This document shows, piece after piece, positions 16,350-20,963 of a stretch of DNA of 64,000 nucleotides. The notes under the pieces are model-generated. The model ran no database searches and was not told the DNA's origin. It was given only the letters and a program-made list of their open reading frames with translations. Numbering within the stretch: the stretch's first letter is position 1; each line of letters begins with the position of its first letter. The stretch covers positions 434,001-498,000 of the forward strand of contig NZ_JAGKSQ010000003.1 in assembly GCF_017939705.1 (NCBI RefSeq), read 5' to 3'. The DNA is from Halalkalibacter suaedae. Its GTDB lineage: Bacteria; Bacillota; Bacilli; Bacillales; Bacillaceae_D. Position numbers and translations under genes: made by a program.

Positions 16350-16880
16350 TCAACTTCTTATGAAACTTGCTGTTATTACACATTCGTGCTCACTTAATTC
16401 CTCTAACTTTGCTGCTAGTCCATCATCTGTTACTACCTCACTCCAATCCTCCAGAGACATATTTAATGAGCCTTGAAAATCAAAGGTCAACTCACATACG
16501 TCTTTCTTAAACAGGAATGAAAGTAACAAGTTATTTTCAGCATCCTTCGTGCACGCATCATTTAGTTTCTCCGTAACTGCTCTGCATAACCGTAAAAGGC
16601 GCTCTTCTTCCTTGAAAAGTGAAAAAACATCACCAGCTAAATCCATATCAAGCTTTGTCGGATGATTTGCCCAATTATATGTTAATAGAAAGTATTCAAC
16701 ACTAGTTGCCTCTATCGCCGATAACTTGCTTTCAGAAAATGATTGCTGGGTTACTTGCTCAATGATTTCCTCTATTCGGTCATACCTATTTAATGCTAGA
16801 TTTCCTTTTATTAACTGAATTACGTTCAACCAATCATGACGCGTTTGACGAAGCGCCTTTAGGATATCTGATTGTGTCAT
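16350..16880 (-). CDS. spo0B: Sporulation phosphotransferase Spo0B
   Basis: Relays phosphate from Spo0F to Spo0A. It has 176 residues. The N-terminal helical hairpin carries the phosphorylatable His in LRQTRHDWLNVIQLIKGNL (about H14). The C-terminal half resembles a degenerate kinase ATP domain without the ATP motifs, as expected. It lies 11 bases upstream of obg. In B. subtilis rpmA, ysxB and rplU come before spo0B; here that side is replaced by the microprotein locus. Confidence 0.9.
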   Translation of the reverse strand: MTQSDILKALRQTRHDWLNVIQLIKGNLALNRYDRIEEIIEQVTQQSFSESKLSAIEATSVEYFLLTYNWANHPTKLDMDLAGDVFSLFKEEERLLRLCRAVTEKLNDACTKDAENNLLLSFLFKKDVCELTFDFQGSLNMSLEDWSEVVTDDGLAAKLEELSEHECVITASFIRS

Positions 16881-17177
16881 TGGCTTCCTCGTCCCTTCAC
16901 GAGTATTTGTTTCGATCAGTCAAGTTCCCATCGCTTATCTTACCACATATTAGCAAGCACTTGGAATGCCGTTCTTTCAATACCTTATATACGTTATTTT
17001 TTTCAATCAGGTTTCATGGTTGCAAACACATATTTAATGAAGGAGTAGGTCTACTTTTGCTTCCTACAATACAACTGTTTTAGGGAATATCTTTTTACTA
17101 CAATAACTTTAGTCAAAGATTAAAACTATTCTGTCAACACCTTTTCTTAAATTGATGAAAAAAATTCACATTTGACC

Positions 17178-17206
17178 TTTACAAAGCCTTTTTAATTGGA
17201 TATAAT
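17178..17206 (+). promoter_or_regulatory. Strong sigma-A promoter for the microprotein locus
   Basis: TTTACA (17178-17183), a 17-base spacer and TATAAT (17201-17206). Transcription would begin near 17213, about 35 bases before the leader ORF. The DNA from 16881 to this point is AT-rich and shows no gene I can support. Confidence 0.8.
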
Positions 17207-17246
17207 TTCCTAGTACTCAAAAAAAGCACAAAGGAGGCTGAAGAAA

Positions 17247-17330
17247 ATGTTGCTATGTATTGACAAACTAAATCCAATTTCATATTTCAACAGTTCACTT
17301 CGAGCCGACTTTAATCATTCATTTATATAA
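17247..17330 (+). CDS. Candidate 27-residue leader peptide
   Basis: Tiny ORF with a near-perfect ribosome site (AAAGGAGGCTGAAGAAA ATG) directly behind a consensus promoter. It begins MLLCIDKLNPISYF and ends with FNHSFI. It is neither a membrane helix nor a known toxin type. Its stop codon is 17 bases before the first of three alternative RNA helices that end in a terminator, which is the layout of a leader peptide whose translation decides whether that terminator forms. It could equally be a functional peptide. I know of no homologue. Confidence 0.6.
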   Translation: MLLCIDKLNPISYFNSSLRADFNHSFI

Positions 17331-17347
17331 TTAAATCGAATGTAGTT

Positions 17348-17431
17348 CTAAGTCGCAGGTGAATTTGTTTCCCTGTGCTTAGCTATATTTATTGTTATTA
17401 GAGCCACAGGGACATTTCTCTGTGGCTTTTT
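17348..17431 (+). promoter_or_regulatory. Candidate transcription attenuator (three alternative helices)
   Basis: Helix P1 pairs CTAAG-CGCAGG (17348-17359, one bulged T) with CCTGTGCTTAG (17372-17382). Helix P2 pairs CCCTGTGCT (17371-17379) with AG-CACAGGG (17402-17411, one bulged C). Helix P3 pairs AGCCACAGGGA (17402-17412) with the 3' arm TTCTCTGTGGCT (17416-17427) and is followed by TTTTTG, an intrinsic terminator. P2 excludes both P1 and P3, so P1 is an anti-antiterminator, P2 an antiterminator and P3 the terminator. The leader ORF just upstream and small genes just downstream fit transcription attenuation. Confidence 0.65.
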
Positions 17432-17486
17432 GTGTGCTTAAAATCTTAATTTAACTAATTAAAGAACATTGAAAGGTGGTGATATT

Positions 17487-17621
17487 ATGACATTCTCATT
17501 CCTATTATTTACAGTCTCGATCAAAAAAAGATATTTAAGTGGTCCTGAGTTAGAAGAAGTTATTCGTCAAAAGAAATACGAACGTGAAGTTCAACAACAT
17601 TTGACTCGCTATTACCGTTAG
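17487..17621 (+). CDS. YrzI-like small protein 1
   Basis: A 44-residue protein starting after GAAAGGTGGTGATATT. The first half reads MTFSFLLFTVSIKKRYLSG, followed by an acidic then basic amphipathic helix (ELEEVIRQKKYEREVQQHL) and a TRYYR tail. This pattern (MT-hydrophobic-TISIKKR, then about 25 charged residues) fits the Bacillus YrzI family, which is often missed by gene finders. It is very similar in plan to the protein at 17754, so the two are probably tandem duplicates. Function is unproven; possible roles are a membrane-associated regulatory peptide or a toxin. Confidence 0.7.
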   Translation: MTFSFLLFTVSIKKRYLSGPELEEVIRQKKYEREVQQHLTRYYR

Positions 17622-17655
17622 GCATTCAAACAATAAAAAAAAGGAGGTAATGTAA

Positions 17656-17718
17656 ATGATTTTTCTAAAAGGTGGATTAATTCAAGATTGGTATGAACAG
17701 GTGAAAGGCCTCACCTGA
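17656..17718 (+). CDS. Candidate 20-residue peptide between the YrzI-like genes
   Basis: Starts at ATG 17656 behind AAGGAGGTAATGTAA, an excellent ribosome site. The peptide is MIFLKGGLIQDWYEQVKGLT. Its last codons lie inside a small hairpin (CAGGTGA 17698-17704 with TCACCTG 17711-17717) that has no T-run, so it is not a terminator. Translating this ORF would melt the hairpin, which could tie its translation to stability or expression of the next gene. The ribosome site is the only evidence that it is real. Confidence 0.45.
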   Translation: MIFLKGGLIQDWYEQVKGLT

Positions 17719-17753
17719 ATACGCTCATTACATGTGAGATAGGGGGACCAAAT

Positions 17754-17885
17754 ATGACTTTATATTTTATTTTGTTTACCATTTCAATTAAACGTCGCCA
17801 TCGAACAGGAGACGAGATTGAACGGTTAGTAAGACGACAACATAATCAAAGACAACATGAGAAACGAATGTCACGATTTTATTAA
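17754..17885 (+). CDS. YrzI-like small protein 2
   Basis: A 43-residue protein behind AGGGGGACCAAAT. The N-terminus MTLYFILFTISIKRRHRTG parallels the first YrzI-like protein (FLLFTVSIKKR against FILFTISIKRR). The rest is strongly basic (EIERLVRRQHNQRQHEKRMSRFY). The hydrophobic start and cationic tail suggest membrane or nucleic-acid contact. Last gene of the tiny-gene operon; the next downstream feature is repeat C. Confidence 0.7.
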   Translation: MTLYFILFTISIKRRHRTGDEIERLVRRQHNQRQHEKRMSRFY

Positions 17886-17906
17886 AATTATCATAAGTAG
17901 ACACGT

Positions 17907-18080
17907 GGTTGGGACAAAAGTGTCCTAACTAGTAGAAAATCCGAACAGTTGCTTCGACTCCGCTACCGGGATGGGGGGCAGCACCCGCCGGAGGGCATGG
18001 AACTAACCGGCTTCGCCGGTGGATTTCCATCTGCCCTTCTTTCCTGCAGGAGTCGGCCCTCCCATCCCGTCCGCTTTGAT
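17907..18080 (+). repeat. Type I palindromic repeat C with a type II end
   Basis: Opens with ggttgggacaaaagtg and aaaatccgaaca, which are the type II end, then passes into a type I unit. The outer stem GGGATGGG/CCCATCCC (17968-17975 with 18059-18066) encloses the nested hairpin 17993-18036: GGGCA-TGGAA...ACCGGC-TTC-GCCGGT...TTCCA-TC-TGCCC. This is the reference structure for the family. Confidence 0.88.
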
Positions 18081-18084
18081 AGAG

Positions 18085-18325
18085 GAGGAAAATGGAATCA
18101 ACATTCTTTTTTACATCCTCTATTGTGATTTTACGAAACCAGGTAATAGGTATTTTTTATAATATCGTTGAAAAAGAGTGAAGAGTATGGCAATGATGTC
18201 GACATTTGGTAGATAAGAGGTTGCAAATAGAAAAGACTTAGATTGAAAAGTTAGTTCAGTCTAAAATAGACAAAATTACGTGAAAACGCCTTTGAGAATT
18301 ATCTCTCAAAGGCGTTTCTACAGTT
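18085..18325 (+). pseudogene. IS1182-family relic 1 (mostly deleted)
   Basis: Bases 18160-18250 align by eye with the start of the larger IS1182 relic at about 62235-62330: gatgtc..., then a conceptual L-V-D-K-R-L-Q-I-E against L-E-D-K-R-M-Q-M-E there, with a stop shortly after in both. The sequence then jumps to aaaattacgtgaaaacgcc and the hairpin 18283-18317, which is also the 3' end of the larger relic. Only the two ends of a transposase gene remain, separated by roughly 50 bases. Confidence 0.6.
18283..18317. terminator. IS-derived terminator hairpin
   Basis: AAAACGCCTTTGAGA/TCTCAAAGGCGTTT. Almost the same hairpin ends the relic at 62807-62844. Confidence 0.75.
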
Positions 18326-18329
18326 TATT

Positions 18330-18523
18330 GAGGCTGGACATCACTAAAGTGTCTAACTGAGATTCCGAACAAAGCAATCATATAGCGGATGAAATATACG
18401 AAGACTCCTGCGGGATGTAAAGCCAAAGGTGAGACCCCGTAGTGCAAGGCACAAGGAGGCTCACCGGCTTCCCGCGGAAAGCGTAGTGTATTTCAGGAGC
18501 GGTTTACGTCCACCAACTCACCT
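18330..18523 (+). repeat. Type II palindromic repeat D
   Basis: Starts gaggctggacatcactaaagtg and contains the body with tgaaatata, gactcctgcgggatg, ggtgagacc, ggctcaccggcttcccgcgg and tatttcaggagcgg. The right end (cacttttgtcccagcc in other copies) is lost. Stems are GGTGAG/CTCACC and TCCTGCGGGA against TCCCGCGGAA. Confidence 0.85.
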
Positions 18524-18593: not shown

Positions 18594-20024
18594 TCATACG
18601 GTTTCAGTCACATCACGTAGAATATCATTTGCCGCAGCTTGACCTTGGTCTATGCAGTCTGGTAAGCCAATGCCTTCATACGCCCCGCCAACAAGATAGA
18701 GACCATGTAAATGTTTAGTCACATCTTCTTTGATTTTCGCAATTTTAAAAGAATGTCCTACATGATATTGTGGCATAGCCTCTTTCCATCTTGTTACAAT
18801 GGAGAATTCTGGCTGCCCTTTAATTTTGATAATCTGCTTTAAATCATTAAGTGCCGCACTCACAATATCTTCATCGGATTGATGAACAATGGCAGAGTCA
18901 TTTGGTCTTCCGACATATGCACGCAACAAAGCAAACCCTTCTGGAGCCGTATGCTTCCACTTTTTATGTGTCCACGTGCATGCAGTAATGACATGGTCCC
19001 CTTTTTTTGACACCACAAATCCTGTACCGTCATAAGGCAGTTCGACTTGTTCTTCTTTATAAGCCATTGCCACGGTAGCGACAGATGTTGCCTCTATTTG
19101 ACTTAGATAATCAAAATAAGGGTAGCTAGACAGTAATTTAGCCGTCACATGTGGAGGTGTTGCCATAATAACTGAGTCATAATGCTTTGATTCACCATTA
19201 GAAAACTCAATAATAAAATGCTGATCAACTTTGTTGATATTTATTATATCTGCTTGTCTATGAACTGACTTTTTGTTTAGCTTTCTCTCAATTGCATCAA
19301 CAAAAGATTCTAGTCCCTTTTCAAATGATAGGAACATTCCCTGCTTTTTAGGCTGATCGTCGGGCTTCGCTCCAGTTGATGGTTGTTGTTTTCTTGATCT
19401 CGTGATTCCTTTAATTAAACTACCATGTTCGGCTTCCATTTCCTGATATTGTGGAAACGTTGCTCTCAAGCTTAGCTTATCAAGATCACCAGCATAAATT
19501 CCCGAAAGCAGTGGTTCAATCATATGATCAACAACTTCATCACCAAGCCTCCGACGGAAAAAATGCCCCAAAGAGATATCTTCATCACTTGACGTGAATG
19601 CTGGTAAAAAAAGATCTCTAGTTGCTCTTAATTTTCCTAACGGTGAAACCAAATCGGTCTTAATAAATGGCTTCATCTCCGTTGGGATCCCCATGACAGC
19701 ACCTTTTGGTATTGGATGCAGCGTACCTGTTTTTAAAATAAAGGCCTGGCCAGTGTCATTATGTAGCATTTCGTGGTCGATACCAACTTCTTTCGCTAGT
19801 ATAGACATACTCTTTTTTCTAGCTAAGAAAGAGTCCGGACCTCTTTCAATAATAAAACCATCTCTTTGTTCAGTTTGGATCTTTCCACCTAATCGATCTG
19901 TCTTTTCATACAGATCATAATGGATCTGACTTCCATTCTTTATTGCCTTTTCCAAAGTAAAAGCAGCAGCTAACCCAGTAATGCCTCCACCAATTATCGC
20001 TACACGCTTCTTATTCGTTTCCAC
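18594..20024 (-). CDS. hemY: Coproporphyrinogen III oxidase (HemY, formerly protoporphyrinogen oxidase)
   Basis: FAD enzyme. In Gram-positive bacteria HemY oxidises coproporphyrinogen III to coproporphyrin III in the coproporphyrin-dependent heme pathway. The N-terminal dinucleotide motif is VAIIGGGITGLAAAFTLE. A later segment reads LGGKIQTEQRDGFIIERGPDSFLARK, and the C-terminal FAD motif is GLYLVGGAYEGIGLPDCIDQG. It has 476 residues. The start is GTG 20024, with only a weak ribosome site (GAGAAAG), 6 bases past the hemH stop, so coupling is likely. Third gene of hemE-hemH-hemY. Confidence 0.94.
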   Translation of the reverse strand: METNKKRVAIIGGGITGLAAAFTLEKAIKNGSQIHYDLYEKTDRLGGKIQTEQRDGFIIERGPDSFLARKKSMSILAKEVGIDHEMLHNDTGQAFILKTGTLHPIPKGAVMGIPTEMKPFIKTDLVSPLGKLRATRDLFLPAFTSSDEDISLGHFFRRRLGDEVVDHMIEPLLSGIYAGDLDKLSLRATFPQYQEMEAEHGSLIKGITRSRKQQPSTGAKPDDQPKKQGMFLSFEKGLESFVDAIERKLNKKSVHRQADIININKVDQHFIIEFSNGESKHYDSVIMATPPHVTAKLLSSYPYFDYLSQIEATSVATVAMAYKEEQVELPYDGTGFVVSKKGDHVITACTWTHKKWKHTAPEGFALLRAYVGRPNDSAIVHQSDEDIVSAALNDLKQIIKIKGQPEFSIVTRWKEAMPQYHVGHSFKIAKIKEDVTKHLHGLYLVGGAYEGIGLPDCIDQGQAAANDILRDVTETV

Positions 20025-20030
20025 AATGAA

Positions 20031-20963
20031 TCACGCTTTCTCAGCTAGCTTCTTTTGAACAACAGCAGCTAGACATTCAAGAAACTCTGGTTTTGCATTT
20101 GGCATCTCTGGTCGGTAGTAATTGATTCCTAATTCATCTGTTACTACTTTACACTCGTAATCATTATCATATAGAACCTCTAAATGGTCCGCTATAAAAC
20201 CGACTGGACAGTAGACCATTGACGTATAGCCTTCCTTTTCATATAACTCACGAGTTAAATCTTGTACATCTGGTCCAATCCATGGATCAGGTGTATTACC
20301 CTCGCTTTGCCAGCCGATTTCATAGGTTGAAATCCCTGCCTTTTCAGCGATTAGATCAGCTGTTTCTTGAAGTTGTTGTGGATATGGATCGCCGTTTGCA
20401 ATGATCTTCTCTGGCAAACTATGTGCTGAGAAGATCACACAGGCCTTATCTTCATCTTCAATTTTCGCCATTGTCTCCTTTACTTGCTTTGCCCAATAAT
20501 CAATAAATAACGGCTCATCATACCAGCTTTCTATCGTTGTGATTTCGGGTCCATCAATCTTCGCCGATTCCTCTAGTGCTCGTCCATTATAGGATTTAAC
20601 ACTATATGTCGAGAAATGCGGGGCAAGGACAATACTGACTGCTTCTTCAATGCCATCTTCCTTCATTTGCTTAACTGCATCTTCAACAAATGGATCAATA
20701 TGCTTTAAACCAAGATAGGCCTTAAATTCAATATCGTCGTACATTTCGTTCAGTTTCACTTCCAAGCCAAATGCTTGATCCTCGGTAATCTTAGCGAGTG
20801 GACTAATCCCACCTATTGCTTCATAACGCTCAGTTAGGTCATCGAGTGCTTCCTGAGAAGGCTTACGACCATAGCGGATATGTGTGTAATATGGTTCAAT
20901 TTCTTCTTTACTTCTGGGCGTGCCATACGCCATAACTAGTAGACCCATTCTCTTTTTAGACAT
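20031..20963 (-). CDS. hemH: Coproporphyrin ferrochelatase HemH (CpfC)
   Basis: Inserts iron into coproporphyrin III in the Firmicute pathway. It has 310 residues, the short soluble monomer type. It begins [20 protein letters not shown]. The catalytic His region is [19 protein letters not shown] and the second metal-site segment is [33 protein letters not shown] carries the conserved Glu. No Fe-S cysteine cluster is present, as expected for Bacillus. Middle gene of hemEHY. Confidence 0.96.

What the first reader, a model, noticed from the sequence alone, without database searches (positions are those of the whole stretch)
17178..17885. Attenuator-controlled operon of YrzI-like microproteins
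A consensus promoter, a 27-codon ORF with an ideal ribosome site, three mutually exclusive RNA helices ending in an intrinsic terminator, and then three tiny ORFs each with its own ribosome site follow one another within 710 bases. Two of the three encode YrzI-like proteins. P1 (17348-17382), P2 (17371-17411) and P3 (17402-17427) share sequence so that only P1+P3 or P2 can form. A ribosome halted at or near the leader stop (17330) would abut P1 and favour P2, giving read-through. The design resembles leader-peptide attenuation of inducible resistance or biosynthetic genes, but the output would be microproteins. I know of no description of such control for YrzI-type genes.
Basis: partly seen in the sequence, partly recalled or inferred. 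Interest (0 to 1): 0.86.

Follow-up and report, generated by a model that had tools for sequence, protein, structure and literature searches.

The report
Ribosome-sensing switch before microprotein operon
A short RNA leader with its own tiny reading frame appears to let a struggling ribosome switch on an operon of very small proteins in soda-loving relatives of Bacillus, and a similar leader is recognisable in many related bacteria, apparently including Bacillus subtilis.

Summary
The operon is a yrzI operon in a Halalkalibacter genome. Relatives show more. A segment X in the 3' part of the leader ORF (17289-17311) can pair with the leader's own ribosome-site region R (helix P0) or with the 5' arm and loop of P1 (T1a). 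This gives R:X, T1a:T1b, T2a:T2b (off) or X:T1a, T1b:T2a (on). Own partners R:X and X:T1a pair better than swapped ones across 21 genera (p 0.0005, the floor of 2000 permutations), while R:T1a shows nothing. Leader plus terminator precede 66 of 96 yrzI units against 1 of 350 control segments. In folding forecasts a ribosome at codons 1-4 frees X and forms the antiterminator; one at the stop does not. It works like vmlR and bmrB attenuation. The YrzI output and the link to the Rae1-cleaved yrzI operon are unusual. Nothing was tested at the bench, and equilibrium folding of the whole leader always favours the terminator.

The parts
17178..17206 (+). sigma-70/A type promoter TTTACA-17-TATAAT
   Evidence: 11 of 12 matches; a TATAAT-like element (4 to 6 of 6) lies upstream of most leaders picked in relatives
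17236..17243 (+). segment R (end of Shine-Dalgarno plus spacer of the leader ORF), 5' arm of P0
   Evidence: pairs with 17298-17306, P0 probability 0.96 without ribosome; coevolves with X
17247..17330 (+). leader ORF, 27 aa MLLCIDKLNPISYFNSSLRADFNHSFI
   Evidence: leader ORFs of 21-38 aa at the same place in relatives
17289..17311 (+). segment X inside the leader ORF: pairs with R (17298-17306) or with T1a (17289-17292, 17294-17298, 17306-17311)
   Evidence: native pairing better than swapped, p 0.0005 (floor)
17348..17382 (+).
   Evidence: no U-tract in the window, U-tract in 35 of 51 leaders by a simple rule
17371..17411 (+). P2 = T1b:T2a, second antiterminator helix
   Evidence: 7 pairs; 0.93 with a ribosome at codons 1-6 and RNA ending at 17413; swap test weaker, median p 0.0085, maximum 0.18
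17400..17431 (+).
   Evidence: -19.8 kcal/mol, z -6.3; a second terminator in 26 of 51 leaders by a simple rule (one search shows some that the rule misses)
17487..17621 (+). YrzI-1, 44 aa
   Evidence: PF09501 39.7 bits, cut-off 23
17656..17718 (+). 20-aa ORF MIFLKGGLIQDWYEQVKGLT; S1025-like by position and size; the best conserved DNA of the operon
   Evidence: 31-33 bases at 97% identity in two other genera
17754..17885 (+). YrzI-2, 43 aa
   Evidence: PF09501 22.7 bits, just under the cut-off

Best explanation
A ribosome-mediated transcription attenuator controls a yrzI microprotein operon. Without a ribosome, or with one that translates the leader freely, leader segment X is tied up by R (helix P0, the anti-antiterminator, which also covers the leader's own ribosome site) or is covered by the passing ribosome. 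T1 and T2 then form and transcription ends at about 17431. When a ribosome is held at the start or first codons of the leader ORF (translation inhibitor, ribosome or tRNA defect), R is covered and X is free. X pairs with T1a, T1b is released and pairs with T2a, T2 is delayed, and RNA polymerase reads on into YrzI-1, the S1025-like ORF and YrzI-2. Shown computationally: the segments, their exclusive pairings, the coevolution of R:X and X:T1a, and the recurrence of the layout. Inferred: translation of the leader, the stall site, the read-through, the inducing stress, and Rae1 cleavage of the S1025-like ORF as an off-switch at the mRNA level.
For: Coevolution: R:X native -19.1 against swapped -13.7 kcal/mol, X:T1a -16.4 against -12.8, both p 0.0005 (floor of 2000 permutations) with one leader per genus (51 leaders, 21 genera); control R:T1a -8.3 against -8.1, p 0.32; within 7 Halalkalibacter p 0.004 and 0.008, control 0.86. 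Same result in the 34 loci with a single eligible ORF, 16 genera. Recurrence: 66 of 96 yrzI units against 1 of 350 control segments. Ribosome masking: window X:T1a 0.68-0.93 for codons 1-4, 0.00 without ribosome and at the stop, RNA to 17394. In 51 leaders with RNA ending in the T1 loop, T1a pairs with the leader above 0.5 in 37 with a ribosome at codon 1, 22 without, 13 at the stop; an early ribosome raises it by more than 0.2 in 30 and lowers it so in 0. In G012 the ATG-started leader reads X in another frame while X is kept as RNA. External, B. subtilis: ncr2184 (2779115-2779348, PMC3574147) runs from leader segment R to within 2 nt of the end of T2's 3' arm in genome G721; yrzI and bmrCD mRNAs rise on RNase P or Z depletion (PMC10100781); yrzI and bmrBCD rise together in a whiA mutant (PMC10714963). 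In B. licheniformis yrzI is listed with a 301-nt 5' UTR (PMC3871023, table row).
Against: Equilibrium folding of the complete leader favours T2 wherever the ribosome sits (0.93-0.95), so the on state must be kinetic. With RNA ending after T1b, only 10 of 51 leaders show the early-ribosome switch at equilibrium. With RNA ending in the T1 loop, 21 of 51 gain 0.2 or less. In the window P2 is also high with a ribosome at codons 10 and 11 (0.87, 0.76), although X:T1a is not. X:T1a beats shuffles of its own X at p<=0.05 in 23 of 51 leaders only (R:X in 38 of 51). T1b:T2a coevolution is weaker (38 leaders). Two terminators in a row are found by rule in 17 of 51, neither in 7. 30 of 96 units fail the strict test, some because my rules are strict, some because no leader was found (G063, G060, G064, G006p, G079, G118, G147, G610, G205, G181, G126). 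In the B. subtilis-like leader the forecast is less clear: X:T1a wins even without a ribosome while the RNA ends in the T1 loop. yrzI mRNA levels in the cited papers can reflect stability as well as attenuation, and the ncr2184 peak stops just short of the U-tract.
Confidence: 0.7

Rival explanations
1. One reading: a ribosome stalled at or near the leader stop blocks P1 and lets P2 form.
For: The stop codon ends 17 nt before P1, and P2 does exclude P1 and P3.
Against: A masked ribosome at the stop leaves T1 at 0.98 and P2 at 0.21. In 51 leaders the stop position is the least favourable of those tried for pairing T1a with the leader (13 of 51). The distance from stop to T1 varies between relatives, while R:X and X:T1a pairing is kept.
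Confidence: 0.06
2. The leader is mainly a stable regulatory RNA (ncr2184-like) that acts in trans; the terminators make its 3' end and the alternative helices are incidental.
For: ncr2184/ncr60 was catalogued as an sRNA candidate enriched with Hfq in B. subtilis (PMC3574147), the yrzI-yrhG transcript of B. amyloliquefaciens was suggested to have dual functions (PMC4634765), and the leader is highly structured (z -6.1).
Against: X:T1a and R:X coevolve as if competing for X. A leader ORF with Shine-Dalgarno recurs. The authors of PMC3574147 themselves note that terminated leaders resemble sRNAs (passage). No target search was made here.
Confidence: 0.1
3. P0 is a thermosensor or protein site that gates leader translation or termination without ribosome stalling.
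For: P0 covers the leader ribosome site and often its start codon.
Against: The X:T1a partner is hard to explain without a competing occupant of R. No Rfam family reaches its gathering score in the window; the only hit at E<=1 in 17150-17900 is Spot_42 at 24.3 bits against 80 needed.
Confidence: 0.08
4. Chance: terminators with accidental complementarity to a spurious ORF.
For: Terminator arms of similar sequence pair with each other anyway, and promoter-like sites are common here.
Against: 1 of 350 control segments against 66 of 96 yrzI units; coevolution with a clean negative control.
Confidence: 0.04

Closest known systems
vmlR leader of B. subtilis (PMC9226507: outline with abstract, and section 18 read)
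   Same: uORF inside an anti-antiterminator hairpin, overlapping antiterminator, intrinsic terminator; stalling on the uORF lets the antiterminator form
   Different: vmlR uORF is three codons with a single-stranded SD and the output is a resistance ABC-F. Here the leader is 21-38 codons, its own SD region is an arm of the anti-antiterminator, some relatives have two terminators in a row, and the output is microproteins
bmrB leader of bmrCD, B. subtilis (PMC4191407: abstract and passages read)
   Same: leader peptide, three alternative stem-loops, induction by 50S inhibitors shown; [quoted passage not shown]
   Different: 53-codon leader with the terminator inside its coding sequence, drug-pump output, AbrB control; no homology tested
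yrzI operon of B. subtilis (S1024, S1025, S1026, yrzI; Rae1 target)
   Same: YrzI gene behind a leader ORF, T1 and T2; small ORF in the operon; Rae1-family protein present in relatives of the window
   Different: One YrzI followed by the small ORF there, YrzI / 20-aa ORF / YrzI here. The small peptide ends WYEQVKGLT here and TMEKDQV in G721 (read by eye from the DNA; that this is S1025 is recalled); attenuation of the operon not found described
toiL uORF of E. coli topAI-yjhQ (PMC12121999: abstract and section list read)
   Same: one uORF senses at least five classes of ribosome-targeting antibiotic by stalling at different positions, the start codon among them (section heading)
   Different: occludes the next ribosome site and uses Rho, not intrinsic terminators; different output

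Membership tests
ribosome-mediated transcription attenuator (vmlR/bmrB kind) | short ORF with ribosome site upstream of the terminator | tested here: met
ribosome-mediated transcription attenuator (vmlR/bmrB kind) | intrinsic terminator before the structural genes | tested here: met
   sequence criteria only
ribosome-mediated transcription attenuator (vmlR/bmrB kind) | antiterminator that excludes the terminator, and anti-antiterminator that excludes the antiterminator | tested here: met
   X:T1a and T1b:T2a; R:X; computation only, T1b:T2a the weakest
ribosome-mediated transcription attenuator (vmlR/bmrB kind) | leader is translated and its translation is needed for induced read-through | not testable with these tools
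   needs reporters or ribosome profiling
YrzI family PF09501 | first protein (17487-17621) over Pfam gathering cut-off | tested here: met
   39.7 bits against 23
YrzI family PF09501 | second protein (17754-17885) over the cut-off | tested here: not met
   22.7 bits against 23, 20.6; equivalents in G001, G006, G009, G010 and G012 score over it
S1025 / Rae1 cleavage target | small ORF of the yrzI operon with the S1025 peptide | tested here: inconclusive
   same operon and size, but different peptide end; the S1025 peptide and its cleavage codons are known to me only from recall
S1025 / Rae1 cleavage target | Rae1 (YacP, PF05991) present | tested here: met
   41 of 41 genomes of the family, own genome included
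known Rfam leader, riboswitch or T-box | match at gathering score | tested here: not met
   0 matches in the window; best weak hit in 17150-17900 is Spot_42, 24.3 of 80 bits

The most novel reading that the evidence does not exclude
An old, general translation-stress sensor of Bacilli gates one microprotein operon twice with the ribosome: first at transcription, where a ribosome held at the leader start opens the terminator or terminators by a domino of alternative helices, and again at mRNA decay, where Rae1 cuts inside a ribosome on the S1025-like ORF. The leader's ribosome site is its own anti-antiterminator arm, so the switch reads initiation and first-codon progress rather than any peptide sequence, and YrzI proteins are effectors of the response.
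Probability: 0.35. Interest if true: 0.85.

Novelty: new variant of a known kind. Interest (0 to 1): 0.72.

Why it matters
yrzI is conserved in many Bacilli, its peptides are still described as of unknown function (PMC10100781), and its best-described feature is that Rae1 cuts its operon mRNA. A conserved ribosome-sensing attenuator in front of it, of the same logic as that of vmlR, says when the operon is meant to be on: when ribosomes hang at the first codons. That makes its function testable in B. subtilis 168 with ordinary reporters and translation inhibitors, would explain why a leader RNA (ncr2184) was catalogued as an sRNA, and may explain why yrzI and bmrCD rise together in some strains with disturbed translation.

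Tried and rejected
Rfam at gathering score and at E<=1: nothing usable. MAFFT column alignments of 11 leaders (A1) and 26 leaders (A2): the pairing register shifts between species (the window's P0 is shifted against its relatives, and the columns laid on A1 break several X:T1a pairs), so column pair counts are not informative; I used alignment-free swap tests and did not call fold_alignment, the count of structure pairs or build_rna_model. A conserved arrest peptide was considered because leaders share RS or SLWKSSCPS motifs. I rejected it as the main signal because the shared residues lie in X, which is kept as RNA even where the frame differs (G012); a peptide effect is not excluded. The ribosome-masking script had wrong coordinates for P2 and T2; those columns are void and were redone. 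In some searches some loci were read on the wrong strand; orientation was redone. Eight of the 23 places (L033, L037, L041-L046) were judged chance and dropped.

Rows dropped or set by hand: of the leaders picked, G033, G009p, G025 and G642 were dropped as not credible. Six leaders were overridden by hand (G000, G001, G021, G023, G026, G029) and G006, G009, G028, G031 and G068 were set by hand, giving 56. Five without a T1 core by my rule (G030, G061, G018, G074, G130) were left out, so 51 remain; 38 had a T2 core. Leaders were chosen by best R:X energy where several ORFs qualified, which favours R:X; one search repeats the test on 34 loci without such a choice (G031 there is hand-set). The 96 units are not independent: 31 come from one genus, and two are paralogues.

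Full report
What is there. Between spo0B (16350-16880) and the hemY-type oxidase and ferrochelatase genes (18594-20963), all on the minus strand (gene names by family and recall), a plus-strand unit runs from 17178 to 17885. It holds a promoter, a 27-codon leader ORF, three overlapping helices, a terminator and three small ORFs. ORFs 1 and 3 are YrzI-type (PF09501, 39.7 and 22.7 bits, cut-off 23). The middle ORF (20 aa, ending WYEQVKGLT) matches no family, but its DNA is the best conserved stretch of the operon (31-33 bases at 97% in two other genera).

Relatives. A DNA search hit 15 of 60 related genomes. The motif of the middle ORF is in 7 of 13 genomes of the genus, 12 of 41 of the family and, in a looser form, 21 of 397 sampled from the order, where 8 of the 23 places were judged chance. 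YrzI is in 31 of 41 genomes of the family, 40 of 299 sampled from the class and 44 of 44 of the genus of G250. Upstream of many of these genes the same layout returns: TATAAT-like element, AAGGAGG-type site, a leader of about 21-38 codons, hairpins often built on CCGCAGG / CCTGTGG, then the small genes. With strict rules (SD of 5 or more, 15-45 codons, R:X at or below -14 kcal/mol, terminator within 170 nt) 66 of 96 yrzI units pass, against 1 of 350 control segments of the window. By a simple rule T1 is a hairpin in 42 of 51 leaders and carries a U-tract in 35, a second terminator follows in 26, both occur in 17 and neither in 7; one search shows second terminators that the rule misses.

The switch. 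In one search I saw that the region between the leader's Shine-Dalgarno and its start (R) is complementary to a stretch X in the 3' part of the leader ORF. In the window GGCTGAAG pairs with CTTCGAGCC; in other groups GGTCGAATG pairs with CATTCGACC, or GAACGAA with TTTCGTTC. X is also complementary to T1a, the 5' arm and loop of T1; in the window CGACTT/AAGTCG and TTCAC/GTGAA. So R:X, T1a:T1b and T2a:T2b form one set and X:T1a with T1b:T2a the other. The test needs no alignment: if the pairs matter, each genome's own partners should pair better than partners swapped from other genera. They do. R:X -19.1 against -13.7 and X:T1a -16.4 against -12.8 kcal/mol, p 0.0005 (the floor of 2000 permutations) with one leader per genus (51 leaders, 21 genera); the pair that should not form, R:T1a, shows nothing (-8.3 against -8.1, p 0.32). 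Within seven Halalkalibacter p is 0.004 and 0.008, control 0.86. Because leaders had been chosen by R:X energy where more than one ORF qualified, I repeated the test on 34 loci with one eligible ORF (16 genera): p 0.0005 for both, control 0.60. T1b:T2a is weaker (median p 0.0085, maximum 0.18; 38 leaders, 15 genera). Shuffling X within a leader gives p<=0.05 in 38 of 51 for R:X and 23 of 51 for X:T1a.

Where the ribosome must sit. Masking a 31-nt ribosome on the window leader: without a ribosome P0 0.96 and T1 0.95; at codons 1-4 X:T1a 0.68-0.93, then P2 0.93 as T2a emerges; from codon 16 to the stop T1 0.93-0.98. P2 is also high at codons 5-7 (0.92-0.93), 10 and 11 (0.87, 0.76), where X:T1a before T2a is low. 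So a ribosome held early, not at the stop (P2 0.21), should open the switch. In 51 leaders, with the RNA ending in the T1 loop, T1a is paired with the leader above 0.5 in 37 with a ribosome at codon 1, in 22 without a ribosome and in 13 with one at the stop; an early ribosome raises the pairing by more than 0.2 in 30 and lowers it so in none. Once T2 is complete, equilibrium favours T2 at every ribosome position tried, and with T1b present only 10 of 51 leaders switch at equilibrium, so the model depends on folding during transcription, which I did not simulate.

Peptide or RNA. Leader C-termini look conserved within groups (RS..AS in this family, FRSVSEA in another, SLWKSSCPS in the genus of G250), but these residues are coded by X or lie next to it. 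In G012 the ATG-started ORF reads X in a different frame while X itself is kept. This argues for RNA pairing as the conserved feature and for a sensor of general translation progress. A role for the peptide is not excluded.

Bacillus subtilis. Genome G721 has yrzI at 2778941-2779072 on the minus strand, next to a formate/nitrite transporter gene. PMC3574147 lists ncr2184/ncr60, 234 nt, 2779115-2779348, in the yrzI-yrhG gap (table row). In G721 these coordinates run from the first base of the leader's R segment (2779348) to within 2 nt of the end of T2's 3' arm (2779113). I read ncr2184 as the terminated leader; that is an inference. PMC4634765 (passage) notes that the yrzI-yrhG transcript of B. 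amyloliquefaciens codes a small protein and was earlier listed as an sRNA. PMC3871023 (table row) lists a 301-nt 5' UTR for yrzI of B. licheniformis. S1026 is listed as lying upstream of yrzI (PMC3498285, table row). PMC10100781 (section 5 and passages) reports yrzI and bmrCD mRNAs up on RNase P or Z depletion; PMC10714963 (table rows) reports yrzI 5-fold and bmrBCD 4- to 14-fold up in a whiA mutant. PMC10632193 and PMC11780869 (passages) name S1024, S1025, S1026 and yrzI among the RNAs up in a rae1 mutant and S1025 as the first characterised Rae1 substrate. The primary Rae1 papers were not held. The masked-ribosome forecast for the G721 leader is less clear than for the window.

Comparison. 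The logic (anti-antiterminator holding a uORF, antiterminator, intrinsic terminator) is that of vmlR (PMC9226507, abstract and section 18) and resembles bmrB (PMC4191407, abstract and passages). It works like them; membership in the functional sense, stall-dependent read-through, could not be tested. Differences: the leader's own ribosome site is an arm of the anti-antiterminator, some relatives have two terminators that would be undone in a chain, and the product is microproteins. Rae1 is present in 41 of 41 genomes of the family, so a second, decay-level control through the S1025-like ORF is possible, but the peptide differs from that of G721 and cleavage is untested.

Verdict. Its trigger is probably wrong in position and its helix set incomplete. 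I found no earlier description of such attenuation in the papers searched, which cover open-licence papers only.

Noticed in passing
window 17915-18110: A G+C-rich dispersed repeat of about 125-195 bases lies just downstream of the operon; all 40 candidates scored (of 172) in the same genome match at 84-100% identity, the window copy included.
   Followed up: partly
window 18355-18520: A second G+C-rich stretch near the hemY-type gene looks by eye like another intergenic repeat; not searched.
   Followed up: no
window 17680-17718 and L001-L015: The end of the middle ORF (CAGGTGAAAGGCCTCACCTGA) is kept even at silent positions in several genera and can pair with itself; in genus g7 a variant ends VPG[CFS]T. 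It may be a recognition element of its own, for instance for Rae1.
   Followed up: partly
L070, L073: G009 and G006 carry a further YrzI gene elsewhere; no leader of this type was found there by rule.
   Followed up: no
L104: Genome G068 has four tandem YrzI genes behind one leader.
   Followed up: no
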